Shown one piece after another: positions 1,466 to 6,009 of a stretch of 6,553 nucleotides of DNA. Position 1 is the first letter of the stretch. Every line of letters begins with the position of its first letter. Source of the DNA: Candidatus Omnitrophota bacterium (lineage in GTDB: Bacteria; Omnitrophota; Koll11; Aquiviventales; Aquiviventaceae); assembly GCA_023247285.1 (NCBI GenBank), contig JAHFGU010000088.1, positions 1-6,553 on the forward strand, written 5' to 3'. The notes under the pieces are model-generated. The model did not search any database and was not told the DNA's origin. It saw only the letters and a list, made by a program, of their open reading frames with translations. Both the position numbers and the translations under genes were made by a program.

Positions 1466-2730
1466 TGGCCGGCCGGCTCCGCCAGACCGACCCGGAGATC
1501 GCGGACGCCATCACGCAGGAAACCCGTCGGCAGCACGAACATCTCGAGTTGATCGCCTCGGAGAATTTCACAAGCCTGGCGGTGCTCGAGGCGCAGGGCT
1601 CGGTGATGACGAACAAGTACGCCGAGGGCTACCCGGGCGCGCGCTGGTACGGCGGCTGCGAGTTCGTGGACGTCGCCGAGCATCTGGCGATCGAGCGCGC
1701 GAAGGCGCTCTTCGGCGCCGAGCACGCCAACGTCCAGCCGCACTCCGGCACGCAGGCCAACATCGTCGTGTTCTACGCGCTGCTGCAGCCCGGCGACACG
1801 ATCCTGGCCATGAGCCTGGCGCACGGCGGCCACCTCTCGCACGGCCATCCCAAGAACTTCTCGGGCCGGTTCTTCACGATCGTGCCCTACGGCGTCAACC
1901 GGCAGACCGAGCAGATCGATTATGACGAGGTGGAGGCGCTGGCCCGGCAGCACAAGCCGAAGCTGATCCTCGCGGGGTATTCGGCGTATCCGCGCCTGCT
2001 GGATTTCCCGCGCTTCCGGCGCATCGCGGAGGCGGTCGGCGCCGTCCTGCTGGTGGACATGGCGCACTTCGCCGGGCTCGTCGCCGGCGGCGCCTACCCC
2101 AACCCGGTGCCGCACGCGGACCTCGTGACCTCCACGACGCACAAGACCCTGCGCGGACCGCGGGGCGGCTTCATCCTCTGCCGCGCCGCGCACGCCAAGG
2201 CGATCGACTCGGCGCTGTTCCCTGGCAACCAGGGCGGGCCGCTGATGCACACGATCGCGGCGAAGGCCGTGTGTTTCAAGGAAGCGATGAGCCCGGCGTT
2301 CGCCGCGTATGCGAAGCAGGTCGTCGCCAACGCGCAGGCCCTGGCCGCAGCACTGGCCACGGCCGGCTACCGGATCGTCTCCGGCGGCACGGACAATCAC
2401 CTGATGCTCGTCGATCTCACGCCGAAGGGGCTGACCGGCAAAGAGGCGCAGGATACGCTGGACCAGGCGAAGATCACGGTGAACAAGAACGCGATCCCGT
2501 TCGACCCGCTGCCGCCGGGCAAGGCCAGCGGCATCCGGCTGGGCACGCCGGCCCTGACCACGCGCGGCATGCGCGAGCCTGAGATGGCGCGCGTGGCCGA
2601 GCTCCTCGACGAGGCGCTGGCGCGCCGCCAGGATCCGGCGGCGCTCGCCGCGGTCGCGCGCAAGGTGGGCGAGCTGGCCGACCGCTTTCCGCTCTATCCG
2701 GAGCTGCGCAGAACAGATGCTCAAGGCTGA
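1465..2730 (+). CDS. glyA: Serine hydroxymethyltransferase
   Basis: GlyA is a cytoplasmic PLP enzyme that converts serine and tetrahydrofolate to glycine and 5,10-methylene-THF, the main one-carbon source for purines, thymidylate and methionine. The 421-residue product has standard family length. Visible motifs are [12 protein letters not shown] near residues 26-37, [36 protein letters not shown] and the PLP-lysine motif [14 protein letters not shown] with Schiff-base Lys227. [13 protein letters not shown] and [14 protein letters not shown] follow in the C-terminal part. The start is set by the TGATG overlap with rpiB and a good Shine-Dalgarno site. Homologues usually end around FPLYPEL; here the last few codons and the TGA at 2728-2730 lie inside the left arm of a heptad inverted repeat, so the end of the gene seems to be supplied by that repeat. 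nrdR follows. Confidence 0.97.
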
Positions 2731-2801
2731 AGGCTGTAGGCTGAAGGCTGCCGGTAGCGCTCTTAGAGCGCAGGTCCAGCCTCGAGCCTTCAGCCTTGAG
2801 C
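2719..2801. repeat. 83-base inverted repeat made of AGGCTGA heptads
   Basis: The left arm has four consecutive 7-mers: AGGCTGA, AGGCTGT, AGGCTGA and AGGCTGC (2724-2751). The right arm carries the complementary series CAGCCTC, GAGCCTT, CAGCCTT and GAGCCTC (2777-2804). Bases 2719-2735 pair perfectly with 2785-2801 (17 bp). After a two-base mismatch, 2738-2743 pair with 2777-2782. A separate perfect 6-bp hairpin, GCGCTC-TTA-GAGCGC (2757-2771), sits at the tip. The glyA stop codon is within the left arm. There is no T-run. It has the same layout and span as the repeat at 334-416 but a different 7-mer. Confidence 0.87.
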
Positions 2802-2826
2802 CTCCAGCCCGCGAGCGCAGCGAGCG

Positions 2827-3288
2827 ATGAAATGTCCCTTTTGTGGGCACCAGGAAGACAAAGTGGTCGACTCCCGGGCCAGCTCGGACGGCCGCTCGAT
2901 CCGCCGCCGCCGCGAGTGCCTCTCCTGCGGCAAGCGCTTTACGACCTACGAGCAGGTGGAGGAGCAGCCGCTCATGGTCATCAAGAAGGATGGCCGGCGC
3001 GAGCCGTTTGACCGTCACAAGGTGCTCGCCGGCCTCGTCAAGGCGTGCGAAAAACGGCCCGTGAGCATGGACGACCTCGAGCGGCTCGTGGACGAGCTCG
3101 AGCGCGAGCTCTCCCAGCAGTTCGAGCGCGAGGTCCCCTCGCGGGAGATCGGCGAGCGGCTCATGCCGCGGCTGCACCGGCTCGACCCGGTGGCGTACGT
3201 GCGGTTCGCGTCGGTCTACCGCGAGTTCAAGGATGTCGAGCAGTTCATGCGGGAACTGAAAGATCTGCTGGCGGTGAAAGCCAAATGA
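2827..3288 (+). CDS. nrdR: Transcriptional repressor NrdR
   Basis: NrdR senses ATP/dATP levels and represses ribonucleotide reductase genes by binding NrdR boxes. The 153-residue product has the usual family length. An N-terminal zinc ribbon has the ligands Cys3, Cys6, Cys31 and Cys34 (CPFC and CLSC), with the conserved VVDSR and the basic patch SIRRRRE between the pairs. FTTYE follows, then an ATP-cone domain from about residue 49 to 139. This domain shows [16 protein letters not shown] and the end motif [18 protein letters not shown] 2827 gives the canonical MKCPFCG start. No clear Shine-Dalgarno site is present, because the preceding bases come from the heptad repeat and a GCGAGCG stretch. 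No NrdR box was seen in the window, so its targets lie elsewhere. Its stop overlaps the next gene by 4 bases (ATGA). Confidence 0.97.
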
Positions 3289-3659
3289 CCGACGTGCCGG
3301 CGACGCGCCGTATGCTCATCGTGGAAGATCAGCAGAAAATGCGGCAGCTGCTCACCAACTTTTTCACGGCCCGCGGCTTCGCCGTGACGGCGACGTTCAG
3401 CGGCGAAGAGGCGCTCGCGATGCTGGCCACGCAGCCCGTGGAGGTCGTGCTGCTCGACATCCTGCTGCCCGGCATGTCCGGCATGGAAGTGTTGCGCCGC
3501 ATGAAGCGGCAGCAGCCGAACGTCAAGGTCGTCATCGTCAGCGCCTTGGACCAAGATCATCTCCGCATGGAAGCCCGCCGCTACGGCGCCTGCGAATTCA
3601 TCACCAAGCCGTTCGAGCTGAATACCGCCACCTGGGCGGCCGTGTTCGCGCCGGTATAG
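3285..3659 (+). CDS. Single-domain (CheY-like) response regulator, copy 1
   Basis: The 124-residue protein is a stand-alone receiver domain that would be phosphorylated by a histidine kinase not present here. Receiver residues are all in place: acidic pair Glu14-Asp15 (LIVEDQ), phosphoacceptor Asp58 (LLDILLPG), switch Ser86 (VSAL) and Lys108 in TKPF. No DNA-binding or enzymatic output domain follows; the protein ends 14 residues after KPF with [14 protein letters not shown] 3285 overlaps the nrdR stop (ATGA), so it should be cotranscribed and translationally coupled with nrdR. An earlier in-frame extension into nrdR is not credible. It is about 67% identical (79 of 117 positions by eye) to the regulator at 3981-4337, so the two are recent duplicates or a conserved pair. 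Its partner and output are unknown. Confidence 0.92.
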
Positions 3660-3750
3660 GCGCTGCTCAGCCGTCCAGCCTCGCCAGATTATTCTCGGTT
3701 CCTTGCCAAGCGCTCCCCCCGTCAGGCACACTAGGGGCAGACAATTCGCG
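3660..3750 (+). other. Gap between response regulator 1 and the riboswitch
   Basis: This stretch has no credible gene. A weak promoter for the riboswitch may be here. One candidate is GACAAT (3740-3745), which would start transcription near 3751-3753 at the 5' strand of P1, but it has no good -35 partner. TTGCCA (3703-3708) could be a -35, but its best -10 at 18 bases is CACACT. No terminator follows the first regulator, so read-through from the upstream operon could also produce the riboswitch RNA. Confidence 0.3.
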
Positions 3751-3867
3751 TGTCCCTGGACGAACGGGCAAACCTACGGCGACGTAGGGACGCAACGCCA
3801 CGGGTCCACAAGATCTCCCGCCGGACGGCGGGAACGGATGGATGGCCGGGCTGCCGATACAGGCACG
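3751..3867 (+). ncRNA. Cyclic-di-GMP-I (GEMM-I) riboswitch aptamer
   Basis: The conserved GEMM-I core is present in order: GGGCAAACC (3766-3774), stem CCTACG/CGTAGG (3773-3778/3783-3788) capped by a GCGA GNRA tetraloop, then GGGACGCAA (3787-3795) and GCCACGGGTCC. The second long helix follows: GCCA 3797-3800 with TGGC 3843-3846, GTCC 3804-3807 with GGAT 3836-3839, and CCCGCC/GGCGGG 3817-3822/3827-3832. The 3' consensus GGCCGGGCTGCCG comes last. CCTG 3755-3758 pairs with CAGG 3860-3863 to close P1. By alignment to the Vibrio Vc2 aptamer recalled from memory, A47 is A3794 and G20 is G3767. A guanine at position 20 fits c-di-GMP rather than the cGAMP-type variant, which has A there. It lies upstream of the second response regulator. 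Confidence 0.88.
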
Positions 3868-3887
3868 ATCAGCAGCCCGGCCTTTTT
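3844..3887 (+). terminator. Intrinsic terminator forming the riboswitch expression platform
   Basis: GGCCGGGCTGC (3844-3854) pairs perfectly over 11 bp with GCAGCCCGGCC (3872-3882), followed by TTTTT (3883-3887). After one mismatch, GAT 3856-3858 also pairs with ATC 3868-3870. The left arm is the same sequence that forms the 3' side of the aptamer, so aptamer and terminator cannot fold together. Ligand binding should hold the left arm and allow read-through, predicting a c-di-GMP-activated (ON) switch for the gene at 3981. Confidence 0.88.
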
Positions 3888-3970
3888 CTATCCGATCATT
3901 GCCCGGTATGCCGGGGCTGCGAGAGGGGGTGGGGGGTGCTGGACGACGCCGTCGAAGCCTTGATCGCGGC

Positions 3971-3976
3971 GGGAGG
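3971..3976 (+). promoter_or_regulatory. Ribosome-binding site of response regulator 2 (GGGAGG)
   Basis: GGGAGG sits four bases before ATG 3981. It supports that start over an in-frame GTG at 3936, which would add 15 residues and is itself preceded by a purine-rich run at 3921-3935. Confidence 0.6.
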
Positions 3977-3980
3977 CGCC

Positions 3981-4337
3981 ATGCGTCGGATGTTGATCGT
4001 GGAAGACGAGCGCGACATCTGTGACATCTTGTCGGAGTTCTTCACCGCGCGCGGCTTCACCGTCACGTCGGCGTTCAGCGGGGAAGAGGCGCTCGAGCTG
4101 GTGGCCCGCGAATCCGTCGAAGTCATCCTGCTCGACATCCTGCTGCCCGGCCTCTCCGGCCTCGAGGTGCTCCGGCGCGCCAAGAAGCTCCGCCCGCACG
4201 TCAAGATCGTCATGGTGAGTGCCCTGGGCCACGACGACCTGCGCTGGCAGGCGCGGCGCTACGGCGCCTGCGAGTACATCACCAAGCCCTTCGACTTCAC
4301 CACCGCCACGTGGGCCGCGGTGCTCGCGCCGGTCTGA
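3981..4337 (+). CDS. Single-domain (CheY-like) response regulator, copy 2, under riboswitch control
   Basis: The 118-residue stand-alone receiver domain has acidic pair Glu8-Asp9 (LIVEDE), phosphoacceptor Asp52 (LLDILLPG), switch Ser80 and Lys102 in TKPF. There is no output domain. ATG 3981 is chosen because [10 protein letters not shown] lines up with [10 protein letters not shown] of copy 1 and a GGGAGG site precedes it. GTG 3936 is an alternative. It matches copy 1 at about 79 of 117 positions, including the shared tail TATWAAV-APV. The acidic-pair flank, helix 1 (DICDILSEFF against [10 protein letters not shown]) and the tip of helix 4 differ, which are regions that often set partner choice. 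A c-di-GMP-I riboswitch with a terminator lies directly upstream, so its level should follow c-di-GMP. Involvement in motility, adhesion or biofilm control is inferred only from that ligand. It is convergent with the chaperone gene, 7 bases apart. Confidence 0.93.
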   Translation: MRRMLIVEDERDICDILSEFFTARGFTVTSAFSGEEALELVARESVEVILLDILLPGLSGLEVLRRAKKLRPHVKIVMVSALGHDDLRWQARRYGACEYITKPFDFTTATWAAVLAPV

Positions 4338-4344
4338 GCCGGGC

Positions 4345-5931
4345 TCACCCGTTCGGCTTGCCCATGGCGCGTTCGACGTTCGCCCGCGCCCGCAGGTCCT
4401 CCAGCCAGCGCTGCAGCACTTCGGTTTCCTTCCGCGTGACGATGTTGGCCCGGTCGTTCTCGAGGGCGTGCGCGATCGCCGCCGCATCAGGGGCCACGCG
4501 CGCTTCCGGCAGGAGCAGGATGGCGCCGGACTGCGTCGGCATCGCCTCGGTCAGCGTGCCGAGCGGGACGGCGAACGCGGCACGGTTGGCCTCCGGCGCC
4601 TCGATGCCGAGCGGGTCCAAGCGTTGAGTCCTGGTGAAGTCTACGGGTGTGCCGGCGGCGCCTTCCACCAACAGCGTTTCGTCGAGCCGCCATCCCCCCA
4701 CGATCCGGTCCTGGATGCGGGTGCGGAATGCCCGGGCTGCGCTGAGGGCCGCCTCACGCATGCGCTCCAGGGTCAGCCGCTCGCGGACGATGCCGCGCAC
4801 TTGCTCGAGCGGCGGCACCTCCGCCGGCAGCCGCTGCGTCAGGCGGCCGAGATACACCCCCGTCCCGGTCTCCACTACGTCGCTGAGCCCGCCCACCCGC
4901 AGCTTCGACAGCGCGTCCAGGAGGGCCGGCTCGACCTGCCCATCGCGGGCGTCCGTGCGCATAGGGCCGGCCGCATGCGCGGCGAGGCCGCGCCCGACCA
5001 CGAGCTCCTCGAACCGCCAGCCCTGCGTGCGCGCGTCTTCCAGATCCATGGCGAAGGTGGCCAGCTGCCGCGCGGCGCGCTCGTCTACGAGGCGGCTGCG
5101 CACGTCCTCCTGGGCCTGCTCGAAGGGCTTCGGCGTCTTGTCCTCGCCGGCGAAGGCCTCTTGATGGGTGGCGTAGTACGCGCGCAGTTCCTCCTCAGTC
5201 GGCTGGATGCCGGCGGCGGCCTCCGCCTGAGTAAGGCCGACGTATTCGATCGCGATGCGCTCCGGAACGCGGACTGCGTCCTGGTGCGCGTCGTAGTAGG
5301 CGCGCACCGCCTCGTCGGTCACCGCCGCCGCCACCGCCTCACGGTGCGACGCCGCATCGAAGACAAACGCCCGGCCCTGGATGCGTTCCCGGTCCTCCAC
5401 GACGGCCGCGAGCACCTGGATTTCGCTGGGCGCGGCCGCGTCGCGGGTGCCGCGCAGCAGCTTATCGATCACAAGCTGGCTGCGAATCATCGATTCGAAC
5501 GCGCTTGGGGTGGAGCCCAGGAACTGGACATAGCGCGCATAGCGGTCGGCAACGAATCGTCCCTGGTCCTGGAACGCGGGGATCTCCCGGATGGTCCGAG
5601 CGACCTCGGCGTCCGGGACGTGGAGGCGCCGCCGCCGCGCTTCTTCCAGCAAGACCAGGCGGTCCCAGGCCTGCTGCTCGAGCCAGGGTTCCACGAAGGC
5701 GGCCGGCAGGCTGCGCGAGGTCTCATCCATCTGCATCCGCAGCCAGCGTCGCTGCGCATCGAACGTCTCCCACGGCACCGGCTTGCCGAACATCTTGCCG
5801 GCGATCCCGCCCGGCCCGGGAGGTGCTGTGCCGCCGGCGAAAAAGAAGAGGAAGGGCAGGAAGAGCACGGCAGCGACAATCAGGCTGGTGCGCCGGCGCG
5901 CCGCCGGGGATTTCATCAGGCGCTTGTACAT
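4345..5931 (-). CDS. PpiD/SurA-like membrane-anchored periplasmic chaperone lacking a clear PPIase domain
   Basis: The 528-residue protein begins with a short basic segment, then a single membrane helix (about residues 16-32, LIVAAVLFLPFLFFF), and the rest should be periplasmic. GKMFGKPVPWETF and the segment ending VPDAEVARTIREIPAFQDQGRFVADRYARYVQFLG (shown in part) match the SurA_N/PpiD chaperone domain, which binds unfolded outer-membrane or secreted proteins. Two YY-containing repeats follow (VRAYYDAHQDA and LRAYYATHQEAF), which in PpiD lead into parvulin domains. No parvulin signature such as RHIL or GGDLG is visible. A C-terminal LRVGGLSDVVETGTGVYLGR segment resembles the last part of a degenerate rotamase-like domain. 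E. coli PpiD, at about 620 residues, is longer. The start at 5931 has no clear Shine-Dalgarno site; Met6 (5916) is an alternative. The gene is on the opposite strand from its neighbours. Confidence 0.82.
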   Translation of the reverse strand: MYKRLMKSPAARRRTSLIVAAVLFLPFLFFFAGGTAPPGPGGIAGKMFGKPVPWETFDAQRRWLRMQMDETSRSLPAAFVEPWLEQQAWDRLVLLEEARRRRLHVPDAEVARTIREIPAFQDQGRFVADRYARYVQFLGSTPSAFESMIRSQLVIDKLLRGTRDAAAPSEIQVLAAVVEDRERIQGRAFVFDAASHREAVAAAVTDEAVRAYYDAHQDAVRVPERIAIEYVGLTQAEAAAGIQPTEEELRAYYATHQEAFAGEDKTPKPFEQAQEDVRSRLVDERAARQLATFAMDLEDARTQGWRFEELVVGRGLAAHAAGPMRTDARDGQVEPALLDALSKLRVGGLSDVVETGTGVYLGRLTQRLPAEVPPLEQVRGIVRERLTLERMREAALSAARAFRTRIQDRIVGGWRLDETLLVEGAAGTPVDFTRTQRLDPLGIEAPEANRAAFAVPLGTLTEAMPTQSGAILLLPEARVAPDAAAIAHALENDRANIVTRKETEVLQRWLEDLRARANVERAMGKPNG

Positions 5932-5946
5932 GCAGCTATTCTACCA

Positions 5947-6009
5947 AATTCGGGGACAGCCACCGCATTCTACCGGCAGGCGGCGGAATGCAGGGGCTGT
6001 CCCCGAATT
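5947..6009. repeat. 63-base REP-like palindrome in the divergent intergenic region
   Basis: AATTCGGGGACAGCC (5947-5961) pairs perfectly with GGCTGTCCCCGAATT (5995-6009). On the same axis GCATTC (5965-5970) pairs with GAATGC (5986-5991) and CCG (5973-5975) with CGG (5981-5983), leaving a 5-base loop. The GGGGACAG/CTGTCCCC arms resemble dispersed palindromes often found with REP-associated (Y1/TnpA_REP) transposases in several phyla, recalled from memory and not searched. No transposase gene is in this window. It lies between two divergent genes, so it might act on either 5' leader. Confidence 0.8.

What the first reader, a model, noticed from the sequence alone, without database searches (positions are those of the whole stretch)
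3751..3980. c-di-GMP-I riboswitch with built-in terminator drives a single-domain response regulator
The GEMM-I core motifs, GNRA loop and supporting helices are directly visible. The terminator left arm (3844-3854) is the aptamer 3' strand, giving a simple predicted ON switch. The controlled gene is a stand-alone receiver with no output domain, so a second messenger would set the amount of a two-component signalling protein, an unusual layering of two signalling systems.
Basis: partly seen in the sequence, partly recalled or inferred. Interest (0 to 1): 0.78.

Follow-up and report, generated by a model that had tools for sequence, protein, structure and literature searches.

The report
c-di-GMP switch controlling a receiver protein
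A messenger-sensing RNA switch sits in front of a gene for a small stand-alone signalling protein in an uncultured bacterium; the switch is a known type, but many related bacteria keep the same switch-and-gene pair, which suggests that one signalling system sets the dose of another.

Summary
Window 3757-3858 matches Rfam RF01051 (c-di-GMP-I) at 51.4 bits (cut-off 35, E 1.8e-9). A G+C-rich hairpin with a U run (3844-3887) uses the aptamer's P3 3' strand and C92-equivalent as its left arm, so the simplest reading is an ON switch. In one Omnitrophota order, 17 of 28 genomes hold the same receiver locus; in 12 of the 17 an aptamer above a Rfam cut-off precedes a receiver. The overlapping hairpin is found in 13 of 13 such leaders, window included; both mutually exclusive folds covary in 10 aligned leaders. 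The binding trio is canonical (G, A, C): RF03167 (-GGC variant) gave the better E-value, but the window misses its cut-off and its G. The window carries two receivers: RR1, overlapping nrdR, before the aptamer, and RR2 behind it. In three other genomes inspected, the same switch class adjoins a histidine kinase with two stand-alone receivers. It is a new member of a known kind with a conserved target; C. difficile cmrRST is a precedent. Ligand binding, switching direction and the receiver's role are inferred.

The parts
2827..3288 (+). nrdR, the gene upstream of the receivers in the syntenic loci
   Evidence: Zn_ribbon_NrdR and ATP-cone domains
3285..3659 (+). RR1: stand-alone receiver whose ATG overlaps the nrdR stop; upstream of the aptamer, so not controlled by it in cis
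   Evidence: PF00072 only; sister of RR2, 68% identical
3703..3732 (+). Putative promoter TTGCCA-N18-CACACT in front of the aptamer
   Evidence: A TTGnCn / [CT]AnnnT pattern with a 16-19 nt spacer was found upstream in 10 of 13 leaders and in 3 of 4 loci without an aptamer above cut-off; inferred. The consensus scan reports no promoter here
3757..3858 (+). c-di-GMP-I (GEMM-I) aptamer
   Evidence: RF01051 51.4 bits, E 1.8e-9
3773..3788 (+). P2 hairpin with GCGA (GNRA) tetraloop
   Evidence: 6 of 6 pairs have changes on both sides in 10 aligned rows
3797..3851 (+). P3 helix (5' strand 3797-3807, 3' strand 3840-3851) with an extra hairpin at 3816-3833 in its loop
   Evidence: 93.6% of cells paired on 10 rows, counted with the pair 3796/3852, which is C-U in the window; fold of transcript prefixes
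3767..3767 (+). G equivalent to G20 (ligand contact; Vc2 numbering recalled)
   Evidence: invariant column of A4
3794..3794 (+). A equivalent to A47 (ligand contact, recalled; a G in the RF03167 consensus)
   Evidence: invariant column of A4; consensus line
3854..3854 (+). C equivalent to C92 (ligand contact, recalled), also the last base of the terminator left arm
   Evidence: invariant column of A4
3844..3887 (+). Intrinsic terminator: arms 3844-3854 and 3872-3882, U run 3883-3887; left arm shared with the aptamer P3 3' strand
   Evidence: covariation in 10 aligned rows
3971..3976 (+). GGGAGG, putative ribosome-binding site
   Evidence: seen directly in the sequence
3981..4337 (+). RR2: stand-alone receiver behind the riboswitch
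   Evidence: PF00072 only, 118 aa; D, D, S/T, K set intact
4345..5931 (-). PpiD/SurA-like peptidyl-prolyl isomerase, convergent downstream neighbour (synteny marker)
   Evidence: Rotamase_2 and SurA_N domains

Best explanation
The leader is a c-di-GMP-I riboswitch that works by transcription attenuation as an ON switch. RNA polymerase starts at a promoter of its own (3703-3732), or reads through from nrdR-RR1. The aptamer (P2, P3) folds first. c-di-GMP, held by G3767, A3794 and C3854, locks the P3 3' strand and C3854 in the aptamer, the hairpin 3844-3882 cannot form, and transcription continues into RR2. Without ligand the more stable hairpin forms and transcription stops near 3887. RR2 is a phosphorylatable Spo0F/CheY-like single-domain response regulator, so c-di-GMP would set the amount of a phosphotransfer protein, while the paralogue RR1 is made with nrdR regardless of the switch. 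Shown by computation: aptamer class, shared arm, covariation of both folds, conserved gene order. Inferred: ligand, direction, promoter, expression of RR1, phosphorylation of RR2 and its partners.
For: RF01051 above cut-off. Same place, same gene: in 12 of 17 syntenic loci of one Omnitrophota order an aptamer above a Rfam cut-off precedes a receiver. Hairpin with left arm inside the aptamer 3' end and at least 3 U in the next 10 bases in 13 of 13 leaders, stems of 7-12 pairs. Aptamer pairs 93.2% kept, 9 of 19 with changes on both sides; terminator pairs 90.0% kept, 5 of 11 with changes on both sides; slid versions 20-48% (10 of 13 leaders aligned). Binding trio invariant in the 10 aligned rows and, by eye, in the other three. 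Order of folding and energies. GGDEF domains above cut-off in 28 of 28 genomes of the order. RR2 active-site residues intact.
Against: No ligand or transcription data. In 5 of the 17 loci no aptamer reaches a cut-off: G005 has the receiver directly after nrdR, G016 and G007 show no aptamer, G013 looks degenerate, and G017 has a sub-threshold match (33.0 bits) that runs into the receiver's start. So the control is dispensable. In G001 the tail is weak (UGUUCGUUGG), and in G002 the U run was counted inside the stem. In single leaders shuffles often reach the observed stem: 17-37 of 200 for G001, G003, G012, G015 and G020, so the shared pattern and covariation carry the weight. In the predicted ligand-free fold of short transcripts P1b is absent and bases around G3767 pair with the upstream leader (its 5' end 3739 is assumed). 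P1 has non-standard pairs in the RF03167 alignment, and P3 has a C-U mismatch at 3796/3852. Three of 13 leaders do not fit the promoter pattern, and one search found no sigma-70 site.
Confidence: 0.85

Rival explanations
1. The aptamer belongs to the RF03167 (c-di-GMP-I-GGC) variant, or to the cGAMP-sensing GEMM-Ib group, and senses another ligand.
For: RF03167 was the match kept in the whole-window scan (E 7.3e-9), and relatives in G001, G010 and G015 pass its gathering score.
Against: The window is below the RF03167 cut-off (46.8 against 59) and above that of RF01051. The base that is G in the RF03167 consensus (after GACGC) is A here and in the 9 other aligned rows. The base at the G20 position is G, not the A of cGAMP-selective members (the A rule is recalled).
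Confidence: 0.07
2. OFF switch or translational control: ligand binding promotes termination, or hides the ribosome-binding site.
For: In G001 only 36 nt separate the aptamer from the start codon and the U tail is weak.
Against: The left arm of the hairpin lies in the aptamer 3' end in 13 of 13 leaders, so the two folds exclude each other. In the window the ribosome-binding site lies more than 80 nt downstream of the hairpin.
Confidence: 0.06
3. Decaying relic: the aptamer no longer responds, and the hairpin simply ends the nrdR-RR1 transcript.
For: Some relatives lack or have degraded the aptamer; the window has an imperfect P3 pair and a weak P1.
Against: Pocket bases, P1b, P2 and the shared arm are intact in the window. 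RR2 behind the aptamer is the slowly changing copy (branch 0.056 against 0.47 for RR1; relative-rate chi-square 7.2 or more with 5 of 7 outgroups, 1.5 and 3.5 with the other two).
Confidence: 0.07

Closest known systems
c-di-GMP-I (GEMM-I) riboswitch, Rfam RF01051
   Same: Aptamer core, GNRA loop, pocket bases; terminator overlapping the aptamer
   Different: Target is a single-domain receiver; extra hairpin in the P3 loop; weak P1
c-di-GMP-I-GGC, Rfam RF03167
   Same: Overall layout; the match kept in the whole-window scan
   Different: Below cut-off in the window; A instead of G at the position that is G in the consensus
cmrRST of Clostridioides difficile (passages of PMC12548384)
   Same: A c-di-GMP riboswitch positively controls genes of response regulators
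   Different: OmpR-family regulators, with an invertible element and autoactivation as further control; here a receiver without output domain
Spo0F and CheY single-domain response regulators
   Same: Spo0F is the best solved relative of the receiver family by profile (6ifh, E 4.6e-28); receiver domain only
   Different: No phosphorelay partner was identified here

Membership tests
RF01051 c-di-GMP-I | Covariance score at or above gathering score | tested here: met
   51.4 against 35 bits
RF01051 c-di-GMP-I | Pocket G20, A47, C92 (numbering recalled) | tested here: met
   G3767, A3794, C3854; invariant in A4
RF01051 c-di-GMP-I | P2 with GNRA loop, and P3 | tested here: met
RF01051 c-di-GMP-I | P1 helix closing the aptamer | tested here: inconclusive
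   non-standard pairs marked (RF03167 model); the RF01051 model shows no P1 pairs
RF01051 c-di-GMP-I | Binds c-di-GMP | not testable with these tools
   needs in-line probing
RF03167 c-di-GMP-I-GGC | Score at or above gathering score | tested here: not met
   46.8 against 59 bits
RF03167 c-di-GMP-I-GGC | G after the GACGC core (read from the consensus line; that the name refers to it is my inference) | tested here: not met
   A in the window and in the 9 other aligned rows
GEMM-Ib cGAMP riboswitch | A in place of G20 (recalled) | tested here: not met
   G3767
Single-domain response regulator | Receiver domain only, with acidic pair, D, S/T and K | tested here: met
   PF00072 only; residues
Single-domain response regulator | Phosphorylated by a histidine kinase | not testable with these tools
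   no partner identified

The most novel reading that the evidence does not exclude
In this Omnitrophota order c-di-GMP riboswitches govern the dose of phosphotransfer modules (kinases and output-less receivers). In the window a tandem duplication split the receiver into a copy made with nrdR (RR1) and a c-di-GMP-induced copy (RR2) that compete for the same phosphoryl groups, so that c-di-GMP tunes a phosphate sink or shuttle by RNA rather than by protein binding.
Probability: 0.28. Interest if true: 0.6.

Novelty: new member of a known kind. Interest (0 to 1): 0.42.

Why it matters
It places a stand-alone receiver, and in some genomes kinase-receiver gene clusters, next to c-di-GMP riboswitches in an uncultured lineage rich in this RNA (306 matches in 28 genomes, summed; some are below the cut-off, as one search shows for five of the genomes). 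It gives a natural comparison, since relatives with and without the aptamer keep the same gene at the same place, to ask what a second messenger gains by setting the amount of a phosphotransfer protein.

Tried and rejected
RF03167 membership was considered because that match was kept, and rejected on score and on the A47-position base. The promoter scan found no site at its threshold; the promoter claim rests on a recurring pattern, found in 10 of 13 leaders and not in G003, G018 and G020. The same scan did not list the window terminator, probably because it allows loops of 3-8 only. The label test on the receiver tree could not tell one gain of the aptamer with losses from several gains (8 changes, 357 of 500 shuffles as low; 13 of 20 inner branches open). 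A partner kinase was sought: G009, G024 and G028 have a kinase behind an aptamer but no receiver match at E <= 1e-25; G023 has one weak match outside the locus; G001 has both a kinase operon and the locus; no pairing could be shown. A phylum-wide search (384 genomes, drawn from a larger group) gave 9 genomes at E <= 1e-33, the nine already known from the order; at most 11 candidates per genome were scored, so misses are possible. The pocket-reading pattern misread G001, G003 and G018 and failed on G004; alignment A4 (10 rows) and reading by eye (G003, G010, G011) were used instead. The Pfam tally of downstream genes used 28 of 34 first-round ORFs and 80 of 99 second-round ORFs; ORFs were picked mechanically, so the tallies are rough. 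Of the 26 order loci L029-L054, 20 were given; L033 and L038 repeat L001 and L002, L049 and L053 overlap scanned stretches, L051 and L052 were not scanned.

Full report
What is there. The aptamer is real: RF01051 at 3757-3858, 51.4 bits, cut-off 35, E 1.8e-9 against Rfam on a 301-base stretch. In the whole-window scan the match kept was RF03167 (46.8 bits, E 7.3e-9, cut-off 59 not reached). The RF03167 consensus has a G directly after the GACGC core; the window and the 9 other aligned leaders have A there. By the Vc2 numbering, which I recall, the pocket is G20, A47, C92: the canonical c-di-GMP set, not the G20A of cGAMP-selective members.

Expression platform. Bases 3844-3854 pair perfectly with 3872-3882 (11 pairs, 17-nt loop), followed by UUUUU. 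The left arm holds the P3 3' strand from 3844 on and the C92-equivalent 3854. Folding of growing transcripts from 3739 (assumed start) gives P2 and P3 up to 3876, and the terminator from 3882; on 3739-3890 the terminator fold is -70.2 and the aptamer-constrained fold -52.7 kcal/mol. In those short transcripts P1b is not predicted and the 5' part pairs with the upstream leader, so the free RNA is not preformed in this model. A ligand would have to act kinetically (inference). For the window 0 of 200 shuffles reached the observed stem; for relatives 0 to 37 of 200 did.

Conservation. A scan with RR2 returned 16 loci, of which the two best are Omnitrophota contigs (L001, L002) with the order nrdR - aptamer - receiver - ppiD on the other strand. 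In their order 20 of 28 genomes have a receiver at E <= 1e-25. Seventeen of these lie next to ppiD, 16 of them also next to nrdR; in G013 the contig starts 370 bases upstream of the receiver. In 12 of the 17 an aptamer above a Rfam cut-off precedes a receiver. The five others: G017 has a sub-threshold match (33.0 bits) with an intact-looking 5' half and a GGGGTCAGACC-type palindrome in place of the 3' half; G013 looks degenerate; G016 and G007 show no aptamer between nrdR and receiver; G005 has the receiver directly after nrdR. In the 13 leaders (12 plus window) a hairpin whose left arm lies in the aptamer 3' end is followed by at least 3 U in 10 bases; it is weak in G001, and in G002 the U run was counted in the stem. 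On 10 aligned leaders both folds are kept and covary: aptamer 93.2% of cells paired, 9 of 19 pairs with changes on both sides; terminator 90.0%, 5 of 11; slid controls 20 to 48%. Three leaders (G003, G010, G011), with long inserts, were left out of that alignment.

Two receivers. RR1 (3285-3659) starts inside the nrdR stop codon; RR2 follows the aptamer. They are sisters (99/99 support), and RR1 has changed faster (branch 0.47 against 0.056; relative-rate chi-square 7.2-10.7 with five of seven outgroups, 1.5 and 3.5 with the other two). Multi-receiver loci recur: G015 has nrdR-RRa-aptamer-RRb-RRc, G012 has nrdR-RRa-RRb-aptamer-RRc, so the aptamer precedes different paralogues in the two. The 23 receivers of alignment A1 keep the acidic pair, D, S/T and K. 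The best solved relative by profile is Spo0F. In the protein collection the nearest relative of RR2 is 92% identical.

Regulon. All 28 genomes have RF01051 matches above cut-off, while 0 of 14 control genomes do. The counts in the table sum to 306 in about 40.6 Mb; some matches are below cut-off, and in eight genomes not all candidates were scored. All 28 have GGDEF domains. I looked downstream of 94 further aptamers from a capped list that favours high scores. Pfam on 28 and 80 of the picked ORFs shows exported subtilases, Ig-like proteins, type IV and Flp pilins, T2SSE-type ATPases, IS200-like transposases and two-component genes. Kinases follow aptamers in G001, G009, G023, G024 and G028; receivers lie downstream in G004 (second ORF) and G019 (about 4.4 kb on, after a 1294-aa ORF). 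In G001 and G023 the order is aptamer - kinase - receiver - receiver; in G024 receiver - receiver - aptamer - kinase. In G009 a divergent gene with two receiver stretches lies on the other side, and in G028 the contig ends in the kinase. The window's arrangement is thus one case of a wider link between c-di-GMP riboswitches and phosphotransfer proteins in this lineage, although these are a small part of the aptamers inspected.

What is known. c-di-GMP-I riboswitches control many gene types (passages of PMC7266159). In C. [quoted passage not shown] start of its abstract). G. sulfurreducens has 17 GEMM-I riboswitches, and many from Geobacter select cGAMP (passages of PMC6456294). Searches for papers with Omnitrophota plus cyclic di-GMP and Omnitrophica plus riboswitch found none in the held library; this says nothing about papers outside it. 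The original papers on the GEMM motif and on the variant families were not read; what I say of G20A and of the numbering is recalled.

Judgement. It is a new member of a known riboswitch class with a conserved, moderately unusual target. The window's own genome was not held, so its lineage is inferred from synteny and identity (NrdR 91-92%, GlyA 86% to L001 and L002).

Noticed in passing
L062, L108, L109, L128: c-di-GMP-I aptamers lie upstream of IS200-like Y1 transposases (PF01797; L062, L108 and L128 above cut-off, L109 at 22.8 against 23), perhaps REP-associated.
   Followed up: partly
L029 1310-1500 (G017) and L037 aptamer (G012): Palindromic repeats (GGGGTCAGACC and GGTGTCTGGCTCC types) sit in or have replaced parts of the aptamers, in G012 within the P3 loop.
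   Followed up: no
window 2716-2809, 5947-6009, 336-407: Long intergenic inverted repeats (arms 19-29 nt, 84-89% complementary), which also give sub-threshold microRNA-family matches in Rfam.
   Followed up: no
L122 and L146, first 25 bases of the aptamer: Two of 94 other aptamers read A at the G20 position by a simple pattern: possible altered ligand preference; the pattern misreads some rows.
   Followed up: no
L093, L121, L130: Aptamers in which the P1b pair next to the ligand site appears swapped (GCC...CGG instead of GGC...CGC, by eye).
   Followed up: no
L137 1-926 (G004:C15): A further aptamer followed by a small exported-looking ORF and another stand-alone receiver.
   Followed up: partly
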